Shown here piece by piece: positions 32,333 to 37,362 of a stretch of DNA of 64,000 bases. The stretch is from Larkinella rosea (GTDB lineage Bacteria; Bacteroidota; Bacteroidia; Cytophagales; Spirosomataceae), in NCBI RefSeq assembly GCF_003858635.1, contig NZ_RQJO01000015.1, forward strand, positions 124,001 to 188,000. Reading direction: 5' to 3'. The notes beneath the pieces were generated by a model. The model had not been told where the DNA came from and searched no databases. It worked only from the letters and a program-made list of their open reading frames with translations. Numbering within the stretch: the stretch's first letter is position 1; each line of letters opens with the position of its first letter. The position numbers and the translations under genes are program-made.

Positions 32333-32358
32333 AAACTATGAAAATAGTTTGCAAACTA
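32333..32358. promoter_or_regulatory. Candidate BlaI-type operator, three AAACTA/TAGTTT half-sites
   Basis: TAGTTTGCAAACTA (32345-32358) is a perfect 14-bp palindrome; another AAACTA half-site at 32333-32338 pairs with TAGTTT across a 6-nt gap. It lies about 90 bp upstream of the blaI-like start and overlaps the putative -33 TTTG box, as expected for a repressor site. Confidence 0.6.
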
Positions 32359-32447: not shown

Positions 32448-32810
32448 ATGGAAAAGTTAACTGCCAAGGAAGAAGAGATCATGCAGGTATTGTGGAAAGT
32501 GGAACAGTCTTTTGTGAAAGACATGCTGGCCTATTTTACCGACCCGCCCCTCCACTACAATACCGTTTCGACCATCATCCGAAACCTGGAAGAAAAAGGG
32601 TATGTGGGCCATCAGGCCTACGGCAACACGCACGAATATTACCCGATCATTACGAAAGAAGACTACCAAAACCGCTTTGTTTTGAAGAAGGTTGTGTCTG
32701 ATTATTTCGATGATTCCTACAAAAATCTGGTGAGCTACTTTGCCAAAAAGGACAAAATTTCGGTGGATGAGTTGAAAGAAATCATTACAATGATCGAGAA
32801 AGGGCAGTAG
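32448..32810 (+). CDS. BlaI/MecI/CopY-family transcriptional repressor
   Basis: A 120-aa winged-helix repressor: MEKLTAKEEEIMQVLWKVEQ, SFVKDMLAYFTDPPLHYNTV, STIIRNLEEKGYVGHQAYGN and a helical dimer tail ending DELKEIITMIEKGQ. In staphylococci the paralogue BlaI is cleaved when the M56 sensor BlaR1 detects a signal. Here the M56 gene follows after 2 bp. The operator-like dyad upstream suggests autoregulation. No beta-lactamase or mecA gene is nearby, as is normal in Bacteroidota, so the signal is unknown. Confidence 0.92.
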   Translation: MEKLTAKEEEIMQVLWKVEQSFVKDMLAYFTDPPLHYNTVSTIIRNLEEKGYVGHQAYGNTHEYYPIITKEDYQNRFVLKKVVSDYFDDSYKNLVSYFAKKDKISVDELKEIITMIEKGQ

Positions 32811-32812
32811 CC

Positions 32813-34522
32813 ATGAGCCTCCTGATTTACCTCCTGCAAGCGGGCCTGATTCTGGCGGTGCTAACGCTCTGCTACCGGCTTTTGCTCCGCCGGGCTACCT
32901 GGTTTGGGCTGAACCGCTATTTACTCGGATTGAACGTTATACTGGCGCTGGTGCTGCCGTTGGTCGAATTACCCGATTTCCGGCCCGCACCCGTGCGCAA
33001 TCTGGTTCAGCAAACCGTGCCGAATTTTCGGGTCCTGGACTGGTCAAAGCTGAAAGCAGCTCCGGCTAATCCGGTGGTTCAAAAACCGCAAAAACAGGCA
33101 CCTGATGCGTTTCTGATTGCCTCGCCGGAAGCAGTTTCGCTCAACTGGCGGCAGATGGTGCTGTGGGCTTATTTGGCGGGGGTAATCTTTCTGGGAGGGC
33201 GGCTATTTATTCAAATTGCGTCACTTGTTCGTCTGATAATTCGGTCGGAACGAACGTGGCAGGAAAACGTCTGGCTGGTGGTGAATGCGGACGTGAGTGC
33301 CCCGTTTTCGTTTTTTCACTGGGTGATTCTGAACCCGGATTTGTACGAGCCCGACGAGTTCAATCAGATTCTGGCGCACGAACGCGTCCACTGCCGGCAG
33401 TGGCACAGCCTGGATATGCTGCTGGCCGAATGGCTGCGGATTGTCTTCTGGTTCAACCCGTTTGCGTGGTGGCACCAGCAACTGGTTCAGGAAAATCTGG
33501 AGTACCTGGTCGATCGGGAAGTACTGGCGGAAGGTGTCGAAAAAAAAGCGTATCAATATTACCTGCTGAAAGCCAGTCTTTCCGGCGAAAGTCCAATTCC
33601 GGTTCGCCCCGCGACCAACTCGTTTAATCAGCCGCAGTTGAAAAACCGGATTTCGATGATGAACCGGCCCCGGTCGAACGGTGGCTGGCAACTGTACCTG
33701 TTTTTTTGCGTCGTCGTCACCCTTTCCTGCTCGGCGTTTACGGTTCCCAAAATTGTTTCGCGCTATGTGGTCGACAATCGGTACGGCGTTTTCGGGCTGA
33801 TTACGGCGGTGACGACGGTGCAGGATCTGGAAGTGATGAAGGCGGTTTTTGCGGATAAAGGCTTTGGCATGCGCTATCAGGCCGATATCAATCCGTCGGG
33901 CCAGATCGATCACATTTCGGTCGAAGTAAAAAACGGCAATCAGGTGGTGGCGCGGGCGCTGAATCAGATTCCGCCGTTCGTGATCACGGCGGTTCAGCCG
34001 AATCCGTCGAAGCCGTTCGTGGTGCAGACCACGCGCCGGGTGATGCAATTGCCCGACACCCTGTTCTCGATCTGGGAACACGAAAAACCGGTGGTGGTGC
34101 TCAACGGCCGCGTTCTGAATCTGCGGCCGGGCCAGCCGTTCGGGTTTGGGTCGGTGGCGGATTACAAGCGAACTGTGCTGACGGCGCAGGAAGCTACCAA
34201 ACGGTTTGGCAAAACCGGGCAATACGGTGCCACGACGATTGACGGGAAAATTCTGGATGCGGTTTTTGCCGCCAACCCGGACGTCATGGCGATGGGCCGC
34301 CAGCTGCTGTATAAAAAAACGCTGGCCCCCGAGCAACTCACGCAGTTTACATTTCTGGTCGACGGAAAACCGGGTTCGTACCGGGAGTTTCGGGAACTGC
34401 GGGCCGACGACAAGATTTCGGTAGCGGTTTTTGATAAAAATTCGGCGGGGAGCGTCAAACCCGCTTTTACGACCAAAGGGCTGGTGGTGGTGACGACCAA
34501 ACGGCAATTGCTGGCCGAATAA
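32813..34522 (+). CDS. M56-family (BlaR1-like) membrane metallopeptidase
   Basis: A 569-aa sensor-protease. Three N-terminal helices (about 4-24, 31-52, 107-135) are followed by the cytosolic zinc site HERVHCRQWHSLD (HExxH at 189-193), then the segment FNQPQLKNRISMMNRPRS (about 271-288), a fourth helix WQLYLFFCVVVTLSCSAF and a periplasmic tail of about 260 residues. The tail has modules like TonB-plug/SusC-type repeats (VVLNGRVLNLR, RFGKTGQYGATTIDGK, then TTKGLVVVTTKRQ) instead of a penicillin-binding domain. By analogy it cleaves the BlaI partner when its tail senses a signal. The two next genes repeat parts of this protein. Confidence 0.9.
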   Translation: MSLLIYLLQAGLILAVLTLCYRLLLRRATWFGLNRYLLGLNVILALVLPLVELPDFRPAPVRNLVQQTVPNFRVLDWSKLKAAPANPVVQKPQKQAPDAFLIASPEAVSLNWRQMVLWAYLAGVIFLGGRLFIQIASLVRLIIRSERTWQENVWLVVNADVSAPFSFFHWVILNPDLYEPDEFNQILAHERVHCRQWHSLDMLLAEWLRIVFWFNPFAWWHQQLVQENLEYLVDREVLAEGVEKKAYQYYLLKASLSGESPIPVRPATNSFNQPQLKNRISMMNRPRSNGGWQLYLFFCVVVTLSCSAFTVPKIVSRYVVDNRYGVFGLITAVTTVQDLEVMKAVFADKGFGMRYQADINPSGQIDHISVEVKNGNQVVARALNQIPPFVITAVQPNPSKPFVVQTTRRVMQLPDTLFSIWEHEKPVVVLNGRVLNLRPGQPFGFGSVADYKRTVLTAQEATKRFGKTGQYGATTIDGKILDAVFAANPDVMAMGRQLLYKKTLAPEQLTQFTFLVDGKPGSYREFRELRADDKISVAVFDKNSAGSVKPAFTTKGLVVVTTKRQLLAE

Positions 34523-34543
34523 ACCTTTTCCCGAACACACCTT

Positions 34544-35665
34544 ATGAAACCGAAAATGCGATCTCCGCAACGCCCGGAGCAGTTCCGTTTCGTCAATCGG
34601 TTCGGTGCTCATTTTCTGAAAAACCGCATTCAGATGATGAACAACGCGGCCAAATCCCGCCGGTCGTGGGCGGTTTATGTCCTTTTGTTTGCGGTGACCG
34701 GTTTGGTCACGACGATGGCTGCGGTGGAGAAACAGAAAAAACAGCCGCTGACCTGGGTAAAGAAAAAATCGGTTTCAACACCGACTCTCCAATCAGTCAT
34801 TAGTCCTGCGCCGGTTGTGGAGAAAACTGTTCCGGTCGGTGATCCCAAAATCCCGGAAAAACCGGTTGCAGAATTGGTAGAAAAACCGGCGGAAACGCCC
34901 ACCGTTTTGCCTGATAACGCCCCGATTGTGGATGAAGTAGCGGTTCCTGAAACCAAACTGCAAAGCCGGTATGTAATCCGGAAAGACAATATGCTGTATT
35001 GGGTCATTACACCCAGAATGTCGTTTAATGAACTCAACGAACTGAAGAAAACGATTGAAAGTGAAACGTTATTTACGTTTGATTTTACACAAATCAAGTT
35101 TGATCCTTTTCAGGTCTATATCGATATCATTGGTGTCAATGTTCATAAGGAAAAAGGCAGCGCAGGTTCCACCGGCGGAGGAGCCGAGAGTGACGAACCA
35201 ATCAAGTCGATTGGCGGCTATTTAACCGATAAAGGTTCGCTGGGAATTGGCAGAGCGAGTGGAAATAATTTCGGAATGCCGGAGGCTTTGGAACGGCTTG
35301 TGAAAGAAGATGAAGAAATTATTGCGAAACTGGTTGAAGCAAAACGGATCGAGTATTTGATTCTGAAAACGAAGAAGACCGGAGTGGGTAGCAGCAGCAC
35401 AAACGTAGAAGGCCAATGGCTGCGTGATAATCCCGGTCGCCGAAATGAGGGCCTTGGCGTTTTTGTTACGCCGGAAAACCGCGTTCAACTCTATCATCCG
35501 GAAAATGTAACCGTGATGATCGACGGAAAAGAAGTAAAAGCTGAGGAAGCTACCTATCTCAATCCGAAGCAATTGCATACGGTTATTGTGACGGATTTGC
35601 CGGACAATGCCGCCGGACCGGGCCGGAAAAAACGCTACGTCCAGCTTTTTCTGAATCAGTGGTAA
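34544..35665 (+). CDS. M56-tail paralogue 1: single-helix protein without protease domain
   Basis: A 373-aa protein with a short basic cytosolic head containing FVNRFGAHFLKNRIQMMNN (residues 16-34), nearly the same as the pre-helix signature of the M56 protein, then one helix (about 42-60), a long Pro/Val/Glu-rich linker (about 75-140) and a periplasmic part with MSFNELNELKKTIESE and TVMIDGKEVKAEEATYLNP, the latter like the DGK modules of the M56 tail. HExxH and the other helices are absent. It is 21 bp behind the M56 gene. It could be a substrate, decoy or accessory sensor of the M56 protease; the function is not known. Confidence 0.7.
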   Translation: MKPKMRSPQRPEQFRFVNRFGAHFLKNRIQMMNNAAKSRRSWAVYVLLFAVTGLVTTMAAVEKQKKQPLTWVKKKSVSTPTLQSVISPAPVVEKTVPVGDPKIPEKPVAELVEKPAETPTVLPDNAPIVDEVAVPETKLQSRYVIRKDNMLYWVITPRMSFNELNELKKTIESETLFTFDFTQIKFDPFQVYIDIIGVNVHKEKGSAGSTGGGAESDEPIKSIGGYLTDKGSLGIGRASGNNFGMPEALERLVKEDEEIIAKLVEAKRIEYLILKTKKTGVGSSSTNVEGQWLRDNPGRRNEGLGVFVTPENRVQLYHPENVTVMIDGKEVKAEEATYLNPKQLHTVIVTDLPDNAAGPGRKKRYVQLFLNQW

Positions 35666-35696
35666 GAAATCAAGTCCGTTTTGTAATGAGTTGGCC

Positions 35697-36671
35697 ATGA
35701 AAACCACAAAACCGTATCGCTACTCGTTCACCAACCGGTTTGAATCCGGCGGGTTGAAAACCCGGATTTTGATGATGAATCAGGCCCGTTCCGACGAAGC
35801 CTGGTGGCGGTATGCCTTGCTTTGGGTAGCAACGGTTTTGGTGATGATGGCTTGCCAGAATTGGGAGAAAACAGATGAGCCAGTCGTGACCAGCCGACGC
35901 GGTTTCCCACTCGTTAATCCAACACGCGTATTGGTCGATCAGATAGAAACCGGTGCCGCCTGGGGCCGGTTGCTGACGTATCACCAAAAGAAAAGCCAGG
36001 GCCGATCCGAATCCGTACTCGAATACGGAGAACCGTTTATCGTCGGACTAAAAAACGAGGTTCTGACGCTGGGTGAGCCCTACAAAGAACAAACGCTGAT
36101 TTACATAAACGGCAAAGAAACGTCGGCGGCTCTGCTGGCTAAACTCAACGTCGACTACATCGAGGAATTTTTTGTGCTGCACCAATTTGACGGAATTGAC
36201 AATCCGGATCCCAAACCGTATCGTATATTAATACAGATCAGCGAAAAAGCCATCGACCGGTTGCCGGGCCGTTCCCAATTCGTCGCGCTGTTGGAAGCTT
36301 CGGCTATTTCTGACCATCCGTTGGGTATTTCGCACACGTATTCAATGAATAATGTACTCGAAGCCACCTTTTTCGGTTACAAGGACGTATTTGTGAAACG
36401 GCTGAAAAACCAGCATCTGAAAGTTCAGGATGAGTTTATGAACGATATAACGGTTTACATCAACGGCATTCCGGTGGACACCAAAGAGGTGGAAACCGTG
36501 CATGTCCGCGAGGTCGACAAACTCTATACCAGCGAACGACCGTATACGAAGTGGCTGCGGACTGAAAAACGCGAAAGCCGATATCTGCTTTTTATCAAAA
36601 CCGCACCTAAACGAGCCCAGCGCGACAGCAGTTACTACGTGTTCAGTCCGTTTTATTCCGGTGATTTTTAA
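35697..36671 (+). CDS. M56-tail paralogue 2: single-helix protein without protease domain
   Basis: A 324-aa protein with the same head: FTNRFESGGLKTRILMMNQA (residues 11-30), then a helix YALLWVATVLVMMAC (about 39-53) whose last residues look like a weak lipobox. The periplasmic part has two DGK-like modules, TLIYINGKETSAALLAKLNV with YIEEFFVL, and DITVYINGIPVDTKEVETV with VREVDKLY, plus ends like YRILIQISEK and YLLFIKTA. These match the plan of the M56 tail (DGK, two helices, beta strand) with no protease. I chose ATG 35697 over the in-frame TTG two codons upstream. It follows paralogue 1 after 31 bp. Confidence 0.7.
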   Translation: MKTTKPYRYSFTNRFESGGLKTRILMMNQARSDEAWWRYALLWVATVLVMMACQNWEKTDEPVVTSRRGFPLVNPTRVLVDQIETGAAWGRLLTYHQKKSQGRSESVLEYGEPFIVGLKNEVLTLGEPYKEQTLIYINGKETSAALLAKLNVDYIEEFFVLHQFDGIDNPDPKPYRILIQISEKAIDRLPGRSQFVALLEASAISDHPLGISHTYSMNNVLEATFFGYKDVFVKRLKNQHLKVQDEFMNDITVYINGIPVDTKEVETVHVREVDKLYTSERPYTKWLRTEKRESRYLLFIKTAPKRAQRDSSYYVFSPFYSGDF

Positions 36672-37362
36672 CGCTTTGCGACATTCCGTGCATCTAATCT
36701 TTCTTTTTCTTCTCTTCGCCTGCGCCCAATCCGGCTCAGAAGACGGCCTTATGACAACCACTCCCAATGCTAACTACCTCGCCCTCGGCGATTCCTACAC
36801 CATTGGCGAGAGCGTTTCGGCCGCCGACCGCTGGTGCGTTCAACTGGCCGGTTTGCTGCGAAAAGACGGTTTGAGTATTACCGACCCCGATATTATTGCC
36901 CGGACGGGCTGGACCACCAGCGAGTTACATGACGCCATCAAAAAGAGCGGAAATCAGAAAACGTACAGCCTGGTTTCGCTGCTGATTGGCGTTAATAACC
37001 AGTACCGGGGGCAAAGCACGGAAACGTACCGGACCGAATTCCGGGACTTGCTGCAAACGGCGGTGCGGTTTGCGGGCGATAAACCGAAGCGGGTTTTTGT
37101 GGTTTCGACTCCCGATTGGGGCGTTACGCCGTACGCGGCTGGGCGAAACAGCCAGCAGATTGCGCAGGAAATCGACGCTTTCAATGCCATTGCGCAGGAA
37201 GAATGCAAAAAAGCCGGTATTCTTTACGTCGATATTACGCCGATATCCCGCACGGCAGCTAACGATCCGTCGCAGATTGCGGACGACCAACTGCATTTTT
37301 CGGGGAAGCAATACCGTCAGTGGGCCGAAAAAGCATTGCCGGACGTGAAGAAGCTGCTGTAA
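36661..37362 (+). CDS. SGNH/GDSL-family hydrolase, probable lipoprotein
   Basis: A 233-aa protein if translation starts at GTG 36661, which overlaps the end of the previous gene by 11 bp; GTG 36688 is an alternative. The signal ends with FLFLLFACAQSG (lipobox Cys). Block I GDSYTIGES carries the nucleophile Ser, GVNNQYRG is block III with the Asn, and ADDQLHFSG gives the Asp/His of block V. Family members are esterases or lipases on carbohydrates and lipids; the substrate is unknown. An open frame extends upstream to 36502 but lies within the preceding gene. Stop codons of this gene and the next abut with no spacer. Confidence 0.8.
   Translation: MIFNALRHSVHLIFLFLLFACAQSGSEDGLMTTTPNANYLALGDSYTIGESVSAADRWCVQLAGLLRKDGLSITDPDIIARTGWTTSELHDAIKKSGNQKTYSLVSLLIGVNNQYRGQSTETYRTEFRDLLQTAVRFAGDKPKRVFVVSTPDWGVTPYAAGRNSQQIAQEIDAFNAIAQEECKKAGILYVDITPISRTAANDPSQIADDQLHFSGKQYRQWAEKALPDVKKLL

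What the first reader, a model, noticed from the sequence alone, without database searches (positions are those of the whole stretch)
32813..36671. BlaI-M56 operon followed by two protease-less copies of the M56 membrane-tail half
The M56 sensor has the segment F-N-x-x-x-L-K-N-R-I-S-M-M-N just before its last helix. The next two genes start with FVNRF...LKNRIQMMN and FTNRF...LKTRILMMN, then one helix and a periplasmic part with the same DGK-type (TonB-plug-like) modules. They lack the HExxH zinc site and the first three helices. Such detached tails could be substrates, decoys, dimer partners or signal receptors that tune the protease that controls BlaI. I know of no described role for such proteins.
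Basis: partly seen in the sequence, partly recalled or inferred. Interest (0 to 1): 0.75.

Follow-up and report, generated by a model that had tools for sequence, protein, structure and literature searches.

The report
Sensor tails split from BlaR1-like protease
In some environmental bacteria the membrane "antenna" half of a signalling protease exists as separate genes next to the protease gene, and the split and fused forms alternate so often among relatives that the pieces probably work together as detachable subunits.

Summary
BlaI (32448-32810) and an M56 protease (32813-34522) are followed by two genes (34544-35665, 35697-36671) that carry only a C-terminal module: the F-x4-LKxRI-x-MMN segment, one membrane helix and a plug-like periplasmic part. 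Each matches the fused tail of full-length M56s in related genera, far beyond the signature. dN/dS is 0.12-0.30. Of 46 distinct detached tails, 41 have M56 upstream on the same strand (35 within 1.5 kb); four others lie at contig edges and one is displaced ~16 kb. Tail type 2 needs 6 fused/detached changes on its tree (4 forced). Tail-less proteases with a detached tail beside them occur at four separate places in the protease tree; the one pair tail-less on both sides has dN/dS 0.11. The split falls at the BlaR1 autocleavage loop. The detached piece contains the unit that BlaR1 swaps between subunits (helix 9, terminal membrane helix) plus the sensor, with a near-invariant Arg and Phe.

Best reading: trans-acting sensor subunits that dock on the protease. 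Docking, signal and cleavage are inferred, not shown. Seven searches of open papers found no description. New variant of BlaR1-type signalling.

The parts
32345..32358 (.). probable BlaI operator TAGTTTGCAAACTA, a perfect 14-bp palindrome 103 bp upstream of blaI
   Evidence: only match in the 8.17-Mb genome with up to 1 mismatch, where the reversed control pattern gives 4; best match upstream of blaI is 13 or 14 of 14 bases in 24 of 36 rows of kin, some genomes counted twice; overlaps a promoter-like match
32448..32810 (+). BlaI-type repressor, 120 aa, with NLVSYF segment
   Evidence: PF03965 E 3.9e-28
32813..34522 (+). M56 (BlaR1-like) membrane zinc protease, 569 aa, with its own periplasmic tail (type 3)
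   Evidence: PF05569 E 5e-17; HERVH and E-Y-L-V-D; BlaR1 alignment
33620..33664 (+). SFNQPQLKNRISMMN segment of M56, aligned with the BlaR1 autocleavage loop and helix 9 (F271 with Phe284, R279 with Arg294)
   Evidence: the Arg may align to 293 or 294
34544..35665 (+). detached tail 1, 373 aa: motif, one TM helix, low-confidence linker, plug-like periplasmic part
34589..34642 (+). FVNRFGAHFLKNRIQMMN motif of tail 1 (F20, R28)
35697..36671 (+). detached tail 2, 324 aa: motif, one TM helix, two beta-rich modules, C-terminus RDSSYYVFSPFYSGDF
   Evidence: fold from the fused homologue
35724..35780 (+). SFTNRFESGGLKTRILMMN motif of tail 2 (F15, R23 counted from the ATG at 35697)

Best explanation
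The two genes encode free-standing C-terminal halves of M56 (BlaR1-like) proteases. They probably derive from full-length M56s by gene splitting and by loss of the protease half after duplication. They act in trans as exchangeable sensor subunits of the M56 protease in their own operon. Each carries the C-terminal part of the autocleavage loop (...N-x-F), helix 9 with the invariant Arg, the terminal membrane helix and a periplasmic plug-like sensor. In S. aureus BlaR1, helix 9 plus the terminal TM helix are swapped between the two chains of the dimer, which brings Arg294 into the partner's active site. Proposed steps: (1) the detached tail docks through helix 9 and the TM helix onto the protease in place of, or together with, the protease's own tail; (2) its short N-terminal ...TN-x-F segment rests in the active site like a cleaved product; (3) a periplasmic signal on the plug-like modules shifts helix 9 and TM; (4) the protease then cuts BlaI, which induces blaI-M56-tails from the TAGTTTGCAAACTA operator. 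Shown here: anatomy, homology, selection, linkage, repeated change between split and fused forms, and tail-less proteases next to detached tails. Inferred: steps 1-4.
For: Fission/fusion: of 33 named loci, 11 have tail 2 fused to M56; of the other 22, 12 have it as the next gene after M56 and 3 more after another detached tail. The tail tree needs 6 label changes, 4 forced by well-supported branches. Five loci at four places in the protease tree have a tail-less protease with tail 2 27-125 bp downstream and keep HExxH and E-x-x-x-D. The one pair tail-less on both sides (two Fibrisoma) has dN/dS 0.11; the other three against kin with tails 0.07, 0.135, 0.21. Detached tails in Larkinella: dN/dS 0.12-0.30 for tail 2 (20 of 21 pairs with a finite estimate), 0.15-0.27 for tail 1 (6 pairs). 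In an HMM alignment Arg is kept in 45 of 46 detached and 79 of 79 fused tails, Phe in 45 of 46 and 79 of 79 (44 of 46 and 76 of 79 with a second profile). In detached tail 2 the motif is more conserved (0.60) than the periplasmic part (0.51). M56 upstream in 41 of 46. BlaR1 entries are the best structural hits of the fused protein (Foldseek E 3.9e-6; profile E 2.6e-6). BlaR1 swap and Arg294: PMC9834060. Where a tail has moved ~16 kb away (L. knui) its motif is eroded (40-47% identity against 61-74% for the rest), while in the 15 other Larkinella pairs the motif is at least as conserved as the rest. Where no M56 is left in the locus (S. endophyticum) the tail is broken.
Against: No interaction or activity was measured, and no complex could be modelled. 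The BlaR1 paper shows the loop entering its own chain's active site in cis, so trans docking of the loop has no precedent; only helix 9 plus TM is swapped. The Arg aligns to 294 in one alignment and to 293 in another. Two of the five tail-less proteases (L. soli, S. spitsbergense) keep a remnant of their own motif. Only one tail-less pair can be compared with each other, so selection on the tail-less state rests on it. One Larkinella genome (G004) lacks tail 2, another (G008) lacks tail 1, and tail 1 is broken in G003, so neither tail alone is essential. The periplasmic parts of the two tails do not match the window M56's own tail directly. The L. knui and S. endophyticum cases are single events, and part of the L. 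knui change may come from small compensating indels. AlphaFold models are moderate (pTM 0.50 and 0.43), and TM-scores to whole BlaR1 chains are low (0.24-0.31; 0.54 to the protease part of one entry). Change counts on trees do not give direction.
Confidence: 0.6

Rival explanations
1. The detached tails are trans substrates or product-like inhibitors. The M56 active site binds or cuts the N-terminal ...TN-x-F segment, so the tails compete with BlaI and set the threshold, without being part of the sensor.
For: The position of BlaR1 Phe284 (P1') is F in 19 of 19 detached tail 2 sequences, and P3/P2 are nearly fixed (T 19/19, N 18/19), tighter than in fused tails (5/11 and 7/11) (four rows left out). 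BlaR1's loop occupies the active site in all its structures (PMC9834060 passages).
Against: It does not explain why helix 9, the TM helix and a large conserved periplasmic part are kept, nor why proteases at four places in the tree can do without an own tail. Cutting before the Phe would remove only 6-20 residues in 36 of 46 detached tails (first start codon taken).
Confidence: 0.2
2. The tails are decaying relics of tandem M56 duplicates with no role.
For: Tandem full-length M56 pairs behind one blaI exist (L016/L026, L128, L132-L134). A few split cases look recent or broken (G107 one in-frame stop, G190 and G003 broken frames).
Against: dN/dS 0.12-0.30 across a genus and 0.07 for tail 2 in Fibrisoma; an intact frame for at least one tail in 9 of 9 Larkinella genomes; the motif is the most conserved part.
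Confidence: 0.04
3. The tails are independent periplasmic effectors (TonB- or plug-like proteins) that merely use the M56 C-terminal helix as a membrane anchor and are the induced output of the BlaI operon.
For: They are in the only operon with an operator match at up to one mismatch in the genome. A third detached tail in this genome ends in a TonB_C domain (L124). Plug-like folds.
Against: A mere anchor would not need a near-invariant Arg/Phe motif. The same tails are covalently part of the protease in sister species. The motif erodes when the tail is moved away (one case).
Confidence: 0.13

Closest known systems
BlaR1/MecR1 (M56) beta-lactam sensor-protease with BlaI/MecI
   Same: blaI next to M56, HExxH and E-x-x-x-D, autocleavage-loop segment before helix 9 and the terminal TM helix; the five best structural hits of the fused protein are BlaR1 entries.
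   Different: The sensor is plug-like, not a penicillin-binding domain. The sensor half is also encoded separately, one to four times, and at four places in the tree the protease has no own tail.
Full-length M56 proteins of Bacteroidota with TonB_C, carboxypeptidase-regulatory or Plug domains
   Same: Same signature; detached tails of the second lineage have the same domains.
   Different: Those are one chain; here the tail is a separate protein.
TonB-dependent receptor plug domain
   Same: Weak fold similarity of the tail 1 model and of the fused tail 2 model (Foldseek probability 0.95-1.0 for the best plug hits, E 5e-3 to 8e-3 for the best of each).
   Different: No barrel, inner-membrane anchor, no Pfam Plug match in tails 1 and 2 up to E 1.
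Split two-component receptors, in which sensor and catalytic parts are separate membrane proteins (recalled, no call)
   Same: Logic of a trans sensor.
   Different: The output enzyme is a zinc protease acting on a repressor.

Membership tests
Peptidase family M56 (BlaR1), for gene 32813-34522 | PF05569 match over cut-off, HExxH and E-x-x-x-D | tested here: met
   62.5 bits against cut-off 31; HERVH and E-Y-L-V-D
Peptidase family M56 (BlaR1), for the two tails | protease domain with HExxH | tested here: not met
   No Pfam M56 match, no HExxH (translations). They are detached parts, not M56 peptidases.
M56 C-terminal module (autocleavage segment, helix 9, terminal TM, periplasmic part), for the two tails | motif plus homology to the tail of a true M56 beyond the motif | tested here: met
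   A1/A4 profiles; tail 1 to fused tails E 1.8e-31 over 226 columns; tail 2 to the 11 fused M56s 38-48% identity in the best segment
BlaR1/MecR1 beta-lactam sensors | penicillin-binding class-D-like sensor domain | tested here: not met
   No such Pfam match in the window M56; blaR1_generic 17.2 bits against cut-off 400, matching only the protease part
BlaR1/MecR1 beta-lactam sensors | domain-swapped dimer, autocleavage at the loop, BlaI cleavage | not testable with these tools
   needs biochemistry; single-chain models only
BlaI/MecI repressors | PF03965 | tested here: met
   98.5 bits against cut-off 22.6
TonB-dependent receptor plug | PF07715 match or clear plug fold | tested here: inconclusive
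   No Pfam match for tails 1 and 2; weak Foldseek matches

The most novel reading that the evidence does not exclude
These bacteria run a modular receptor: one BlaI-cleaving M56 protease is served by one to four separately encoded, exchangeable sensor tails that plug into it through the BlaR1-type swapped helix and TM. One repressor can then integrate several envelope signals. Deletions between the motif copies move a tail from trans to cis, and splitting moves it back. Nature has thus shown, at four places in the tree, that the covalent link through the autocleavage loop is dispensable.
Probability: 0.35. Interest if true: 0.82.

Novelty: new variant of a known kind. Interest (0 to 1): 0.62.

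Why it matters
BlaR1/MecR1 signalling has an open question: what the autocleavage loop and the domain swap are for. A 2023 structure paper (PMC9834060, passages and one section read) argues that autocleavage is maturation or turnover; a 2020 review (PMC7593790, passages read) describes it as the step that releases the active protease. Here are natural proteases that appear to be born cut at that place, with the missing half supplied by another gene. The genera involved are environmental bacteria (recalled), in which protease and sensor could be expressed separately, mixed and matched, so that docking, signal transfer and the need for the Arg and the Phe can be tested directly. It also suggests a simple genetic route, recombination between short repeated motifs, for swapping sensors on a membrane protease.

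Tried and rejected
Pfam and NCBIfam on tails 1 and 2: nothing above cut-off. Relic hypothesis: disfavoured by dN/dS. Signature in unrelated proteins: looked for in 241 order, 392 phylum, 326 class and 15 family genomes. Places fetched: 20, 11, 20, 1 and 16 regions, besides the loci that the searches handed over. Of the 20 order regions with frames of about 400-480 aa, 19 held full M56 proteins (20 ORFs) and one the two f14 tails. Outside the window's family and family f14 the fetched short frames were M56 with HExxH, contig-edge M56, or frame-broken M56, apart from G536, where the scan found neither signature nor M56. Not fetched: rows with longer frames, taken as full-length; many 400-480-aa rows of the phylum and class lists; G874 (392 aa); a 384-aa contig-edge row (G052); and matches cut from the tables ('more matches are not listed'). 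One further tail 1 hit (L023, 280-aa frame, G021) showed no motif and no protease in the 3.1 kb held at a contig start. Conserved Cys at the outer end of the TM helix as a lipobox: 33 of 46 detached and 39 of 79 fused, so not specific to detachment; left open. Promoter-like sites 4 against 4.4 expected, terminator-like sites 14 against 9.1 (sd 2.8). Tandem repeats: none. Literature: searches of the open PMC set found no description of detached M56 tails; subscription papers and preprints are not held, so absence is not proof. A first count of the Arg used a pattern that admits only R or K at that place, so it was repeated with HMM alignments, which are the counts given.
Full report
OBSERVATION. 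The window lies at C13:124001-188000 of an 8.17-Mb genome. Named close kin are Larkinella; that the genome is a Larkinella is an inference. BlaI (32448-32810), M56 (32813-34522), tail 1 (34544-35665) and tail 2 (35697-36671) lie on one strand with gaps of 2, 21 and 31 nt. The M56 matches PF05569 (E 5e-17) and the BlaI PF03965 (E 3.9e-28); the tails match no Pfam family above cut-off. In two alignments of segments that I chose, the Arg in L-x-x-R is invariant (24 of 24, 25 of 25) and the Phe before it invariant or over 90%.

THE TAILS ARE HOMOLOGUES OF M56 TAILS. Tail 1 was found in 8 of 9 genus genomes searched (broken in one, G003), and in five further genomes of the family inside frames of 586-620 aa that are M56 proteins; one extra hit there (L023) had neither motif nor protease in the stretch held. 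Tail 2 was found in 8 of 9 genus genomes and elsewhere in the family in one short frame (341 aa) and in three frames of 574-598 aa. A collection scan gave 33 named loci. Reading their genes gave three arrangements. (A) In 11 loci tail 2 is the covalent tail of M56 (568-595 aa). (B) In seven Spirosoma loci a full M56 with another tail is followed by detached tail 2; in four Larkinella loci the same holds with tail 1 in between, and in three of these with a further stretch of about 3 kb, which in L052 holds an M16-peptidase-like gene (1023 aa; identified by eye). (C) In five loci (L. soli, F. limi, F. montanum, S. panaciterrae, S. spitsbergense) the M56 ends at or just after the autocleavage segment (257-316 aa) and tail 2 follows 27-125 bp on. 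The other six are L. knui (tail displaced), S. endophyticum (broken), two short contigs (L066, L083) and two Runella loci with M56 plus two detached tails. A further genome (L116) has M56 plus four. Profile comparison of periplasmic parts: tail 1 against fused Spirosoma tails E 1.8e-31 over 226 columns; the window M56's own tail shares 61 columns with those (E 1.9e-8, probability 95); tails 1 and 2 share one module weakly (E 2.4e-4 directly, 9.6e-5 to the fused relatives; probability 44-58). Directly, tail 1 and the window M56's tail (probability 3) and tail 2 and that tail (probability 0.5) do not match.

EVOLUTION. A tree of 34 tail 2 sequences needs 6 changes between fused (11) and detached (23, one broken), 4 forced by starred branches. 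A tree of 30 protease halves needs 10 changes between the three arrangements; the tail-less state sits at 4 separate places, all forced. Both trees carry long-branch warnings for a few rows, and counts of changes cannot tell gain from loss. Sister pairs show likely steps. S. panaciterrae lacks the own tail that Spirosoma sp. 48-14 keeps. S. telluris has tail 2 fused where S. arboris has own tail plus detached tail 2, and the junction lies within the repeated motif DNA, as expected if the own tail was deleted between two motif copies (inference). Among the places fetched, the detached form is confined to the window's family and to one other family of the order (f14: two tails behind an M56 fragment at a contig edge in G172, and one at a contig edge in G160). 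In 16 further regions with mostly short frames, each signature hit was in an M56 protein.

SELECTION AND CO-FATE. dN/dS for tail 2 in Larkinella is 0.12-0.30 (20 of 21 pairs with finite dS), for tail 1 0.15-0.27 (6 pairs), for M56 0.07-0.25 (6 pairs); dS exceeds 1.5 in some pairs, so these are rough. Tail-less proteases: 0.11 for the two Fibrisoma, the only pair tail-less on both sides; 0.07, 0.135 and 0.21 against kin with tails, which mixes time before and after the loss. In detached tail 2 (19 rows) the 17-residue motif is 0.60 identical on average, the periplasmic part 0.51; in fused tails (11 rows) 0.48 and 0.49 (four rows, L080 and the Runella ones, were left out). M56 lies upstream on the same strand in 41 of 46 distinct detached tails, within 1.5 kb in 35 and within 4.4 kb in all 41; of the other five, four are at contig edges (L127, L083 twice, L066) and one is the L. 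knui tail. The two f14 tails of G172 were found later and are not in the 46. In L. knui the tail sits about 16 kb from its M56; its motif has fallen to 40-47% identity with kin while the rest stays at 61-74%, whereas in the 15 other pairs the motif is at least as conserved as the rest. Part of this may reflect small compensating indels. In S. endophyticum blaI stays, the 13-kb locus holds no M56 hit, a short stub of its start runs into the tail, and the tail frame is broken (read by eye; other places in that genome were not searched). These two are single events.

WHY THE CUT LIES WHERE IT DOES. The window M56 aligns with S. aureus BlaR1 so that its S-F-N falls on Ser283-Phe284-Asn and the motif Arg on Arg294 (weak alone, E 0.42); a profile of the fused proteins (E 2.6e-6) gives the same Phe but puts the Arg at 293. 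In BlaR1 the chain cuts itself between Ser283 and Phe284, the loop lies in the active site, and helix 9 plus the terminal TM helix are swapped between the two chains so that Arg294 reaches the other chain's active site (PMC9834060: abstract, passages and section 6 seen). The detached tails contain this swapped unit plus the sensor. Counted from the first start codon they begin 6-20 residues before the Phe in 36 of 46, up to 58 in the rest (one, L128, has lost the motif start). The proteases keep HExxH and E-x-x-x-D in 30 of 30 examined, which were picked by HExxH. In HMM alignments the Arg is kept in 45 of 46 detached and 79 of 79 fused tails, the Phe in 45 of 46 and 79 of 79 with one profile, 44 of 46 and 76 of 79 with another; the sets include rows from which the profiles were built.

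STRUCTURE. AlphaFold2 of the fused S. telluris protein (mean pLDDT 81, pTM 0.50) shows a low-confidence loop at 258-267, a short helix 271-279 with the motif, the TM helix 285-304 and two periplasmic beta-rich modules that look alike by the order of their elements. Its five best PDB matches are the BlaR1 entries (E 3.9e-6 to 1e-4; TM-scores to whole chains 0.24-0.31), followed by plugs of TonB-dependent receptors such as BtuB (E 8e-3). The tail 1 model (pLDDT 67.5, pTM 0.43) matches a receptor plug first (Cir, E 5e-3). These are single-chain models and say nothing on docking.

REGULATION. TAGTTTGCAAACTA lies 103 bp upstream of blaI and is the only match in the genome with up to one mismatch; the reversed control pattern has 0 exact and 4 one-mismatch matches. 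In 36 blaI genes of kin the best 14-base match in the 160 bp upstream scores 13-14 in 24 rows, 12 in 4 and 10-11 in 8; some genomes are counted twice and the low scores may be chance. At this stringency the operon appears to regulate itself alone; weaker operators were not searched.

READING. The most economical account is that the tails are trans-acting sensor subunits. The strongest arguments are that the same tail is covalent in some species and separate in sister species, and that proteases without an own tail keep their catalytic half when a detached tail is next door. The alternative that the tails are substrates or product-like inhibitors keeps some weight because the residues before the scissile position are tighter in detached than in fused tails. 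Both could be true together. Cases against: not every genus member has both tails; two tail-less proteases keep a motif remnant; one tail (G107) is split from its protease by a single in-frame stop, which may be recent decay or error.

NOVELTY. Literature searches (open PMC set) gave no description. The kind (BlaI-M56 signalling) is known; a protease with separately encoded, repeatedly exchanged sensor halves is a new variant of it.

Noticed in passing
L124 (own genome, C13:707500-716000, outside the window): A second BlaI-M56 locus in the same genome with a third detached tail (309 aa) with CarboxypepD_reg and TonB_C domains; its M56 also has TonB_C and Plug. Whether other Larkinella have it was not tested.
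   Followed up: partly
35697-36671 and tail 2 relatives: Cys at the outer end of the TM helix (...ACQN/ACRH) in 31 of 33 tail 2 rows with a motif, lipobox-like by eye in some; BlaR1 has a signal peptidase site, Gly331, beyond its last TM helix (PMC9834060). Unexplained.
   Followed up: partly
36621-36668: The C-terminus YYVFSPFY[STQ]GDF is shared by 33 of 34 tail 2 rows, fused or detached (exactly RDSSYYVFSPFYSGDF in 20; the odd one is the broken L080), which suggests a fixed binding surface.
   Followed up: partly
L166 (G172:C25): In another family two detached tails follow an M56 fragment and carry what look by eye like WG-type repeats, a different sensor on the same motif.
   Followed up: partly
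L128, L132, L133, L134, L016/L026: One blaI followed by two full-length M56 genes in tandem, a likely source of detached tails.
   Followed up: partly
L141 and L054 (L. humicola): Tail 1 is broken into two frames.
   Followed up: no
L055: Tail 2 of L. knui displaced about 16 kb from its operon with an eroded cytoplasmic motif.
   Followed up: yes
36502-37362: The GDSL-lipase ORF as listed overlaps the end of tail 2; its true start is probably further downstream.
   Followed up: no
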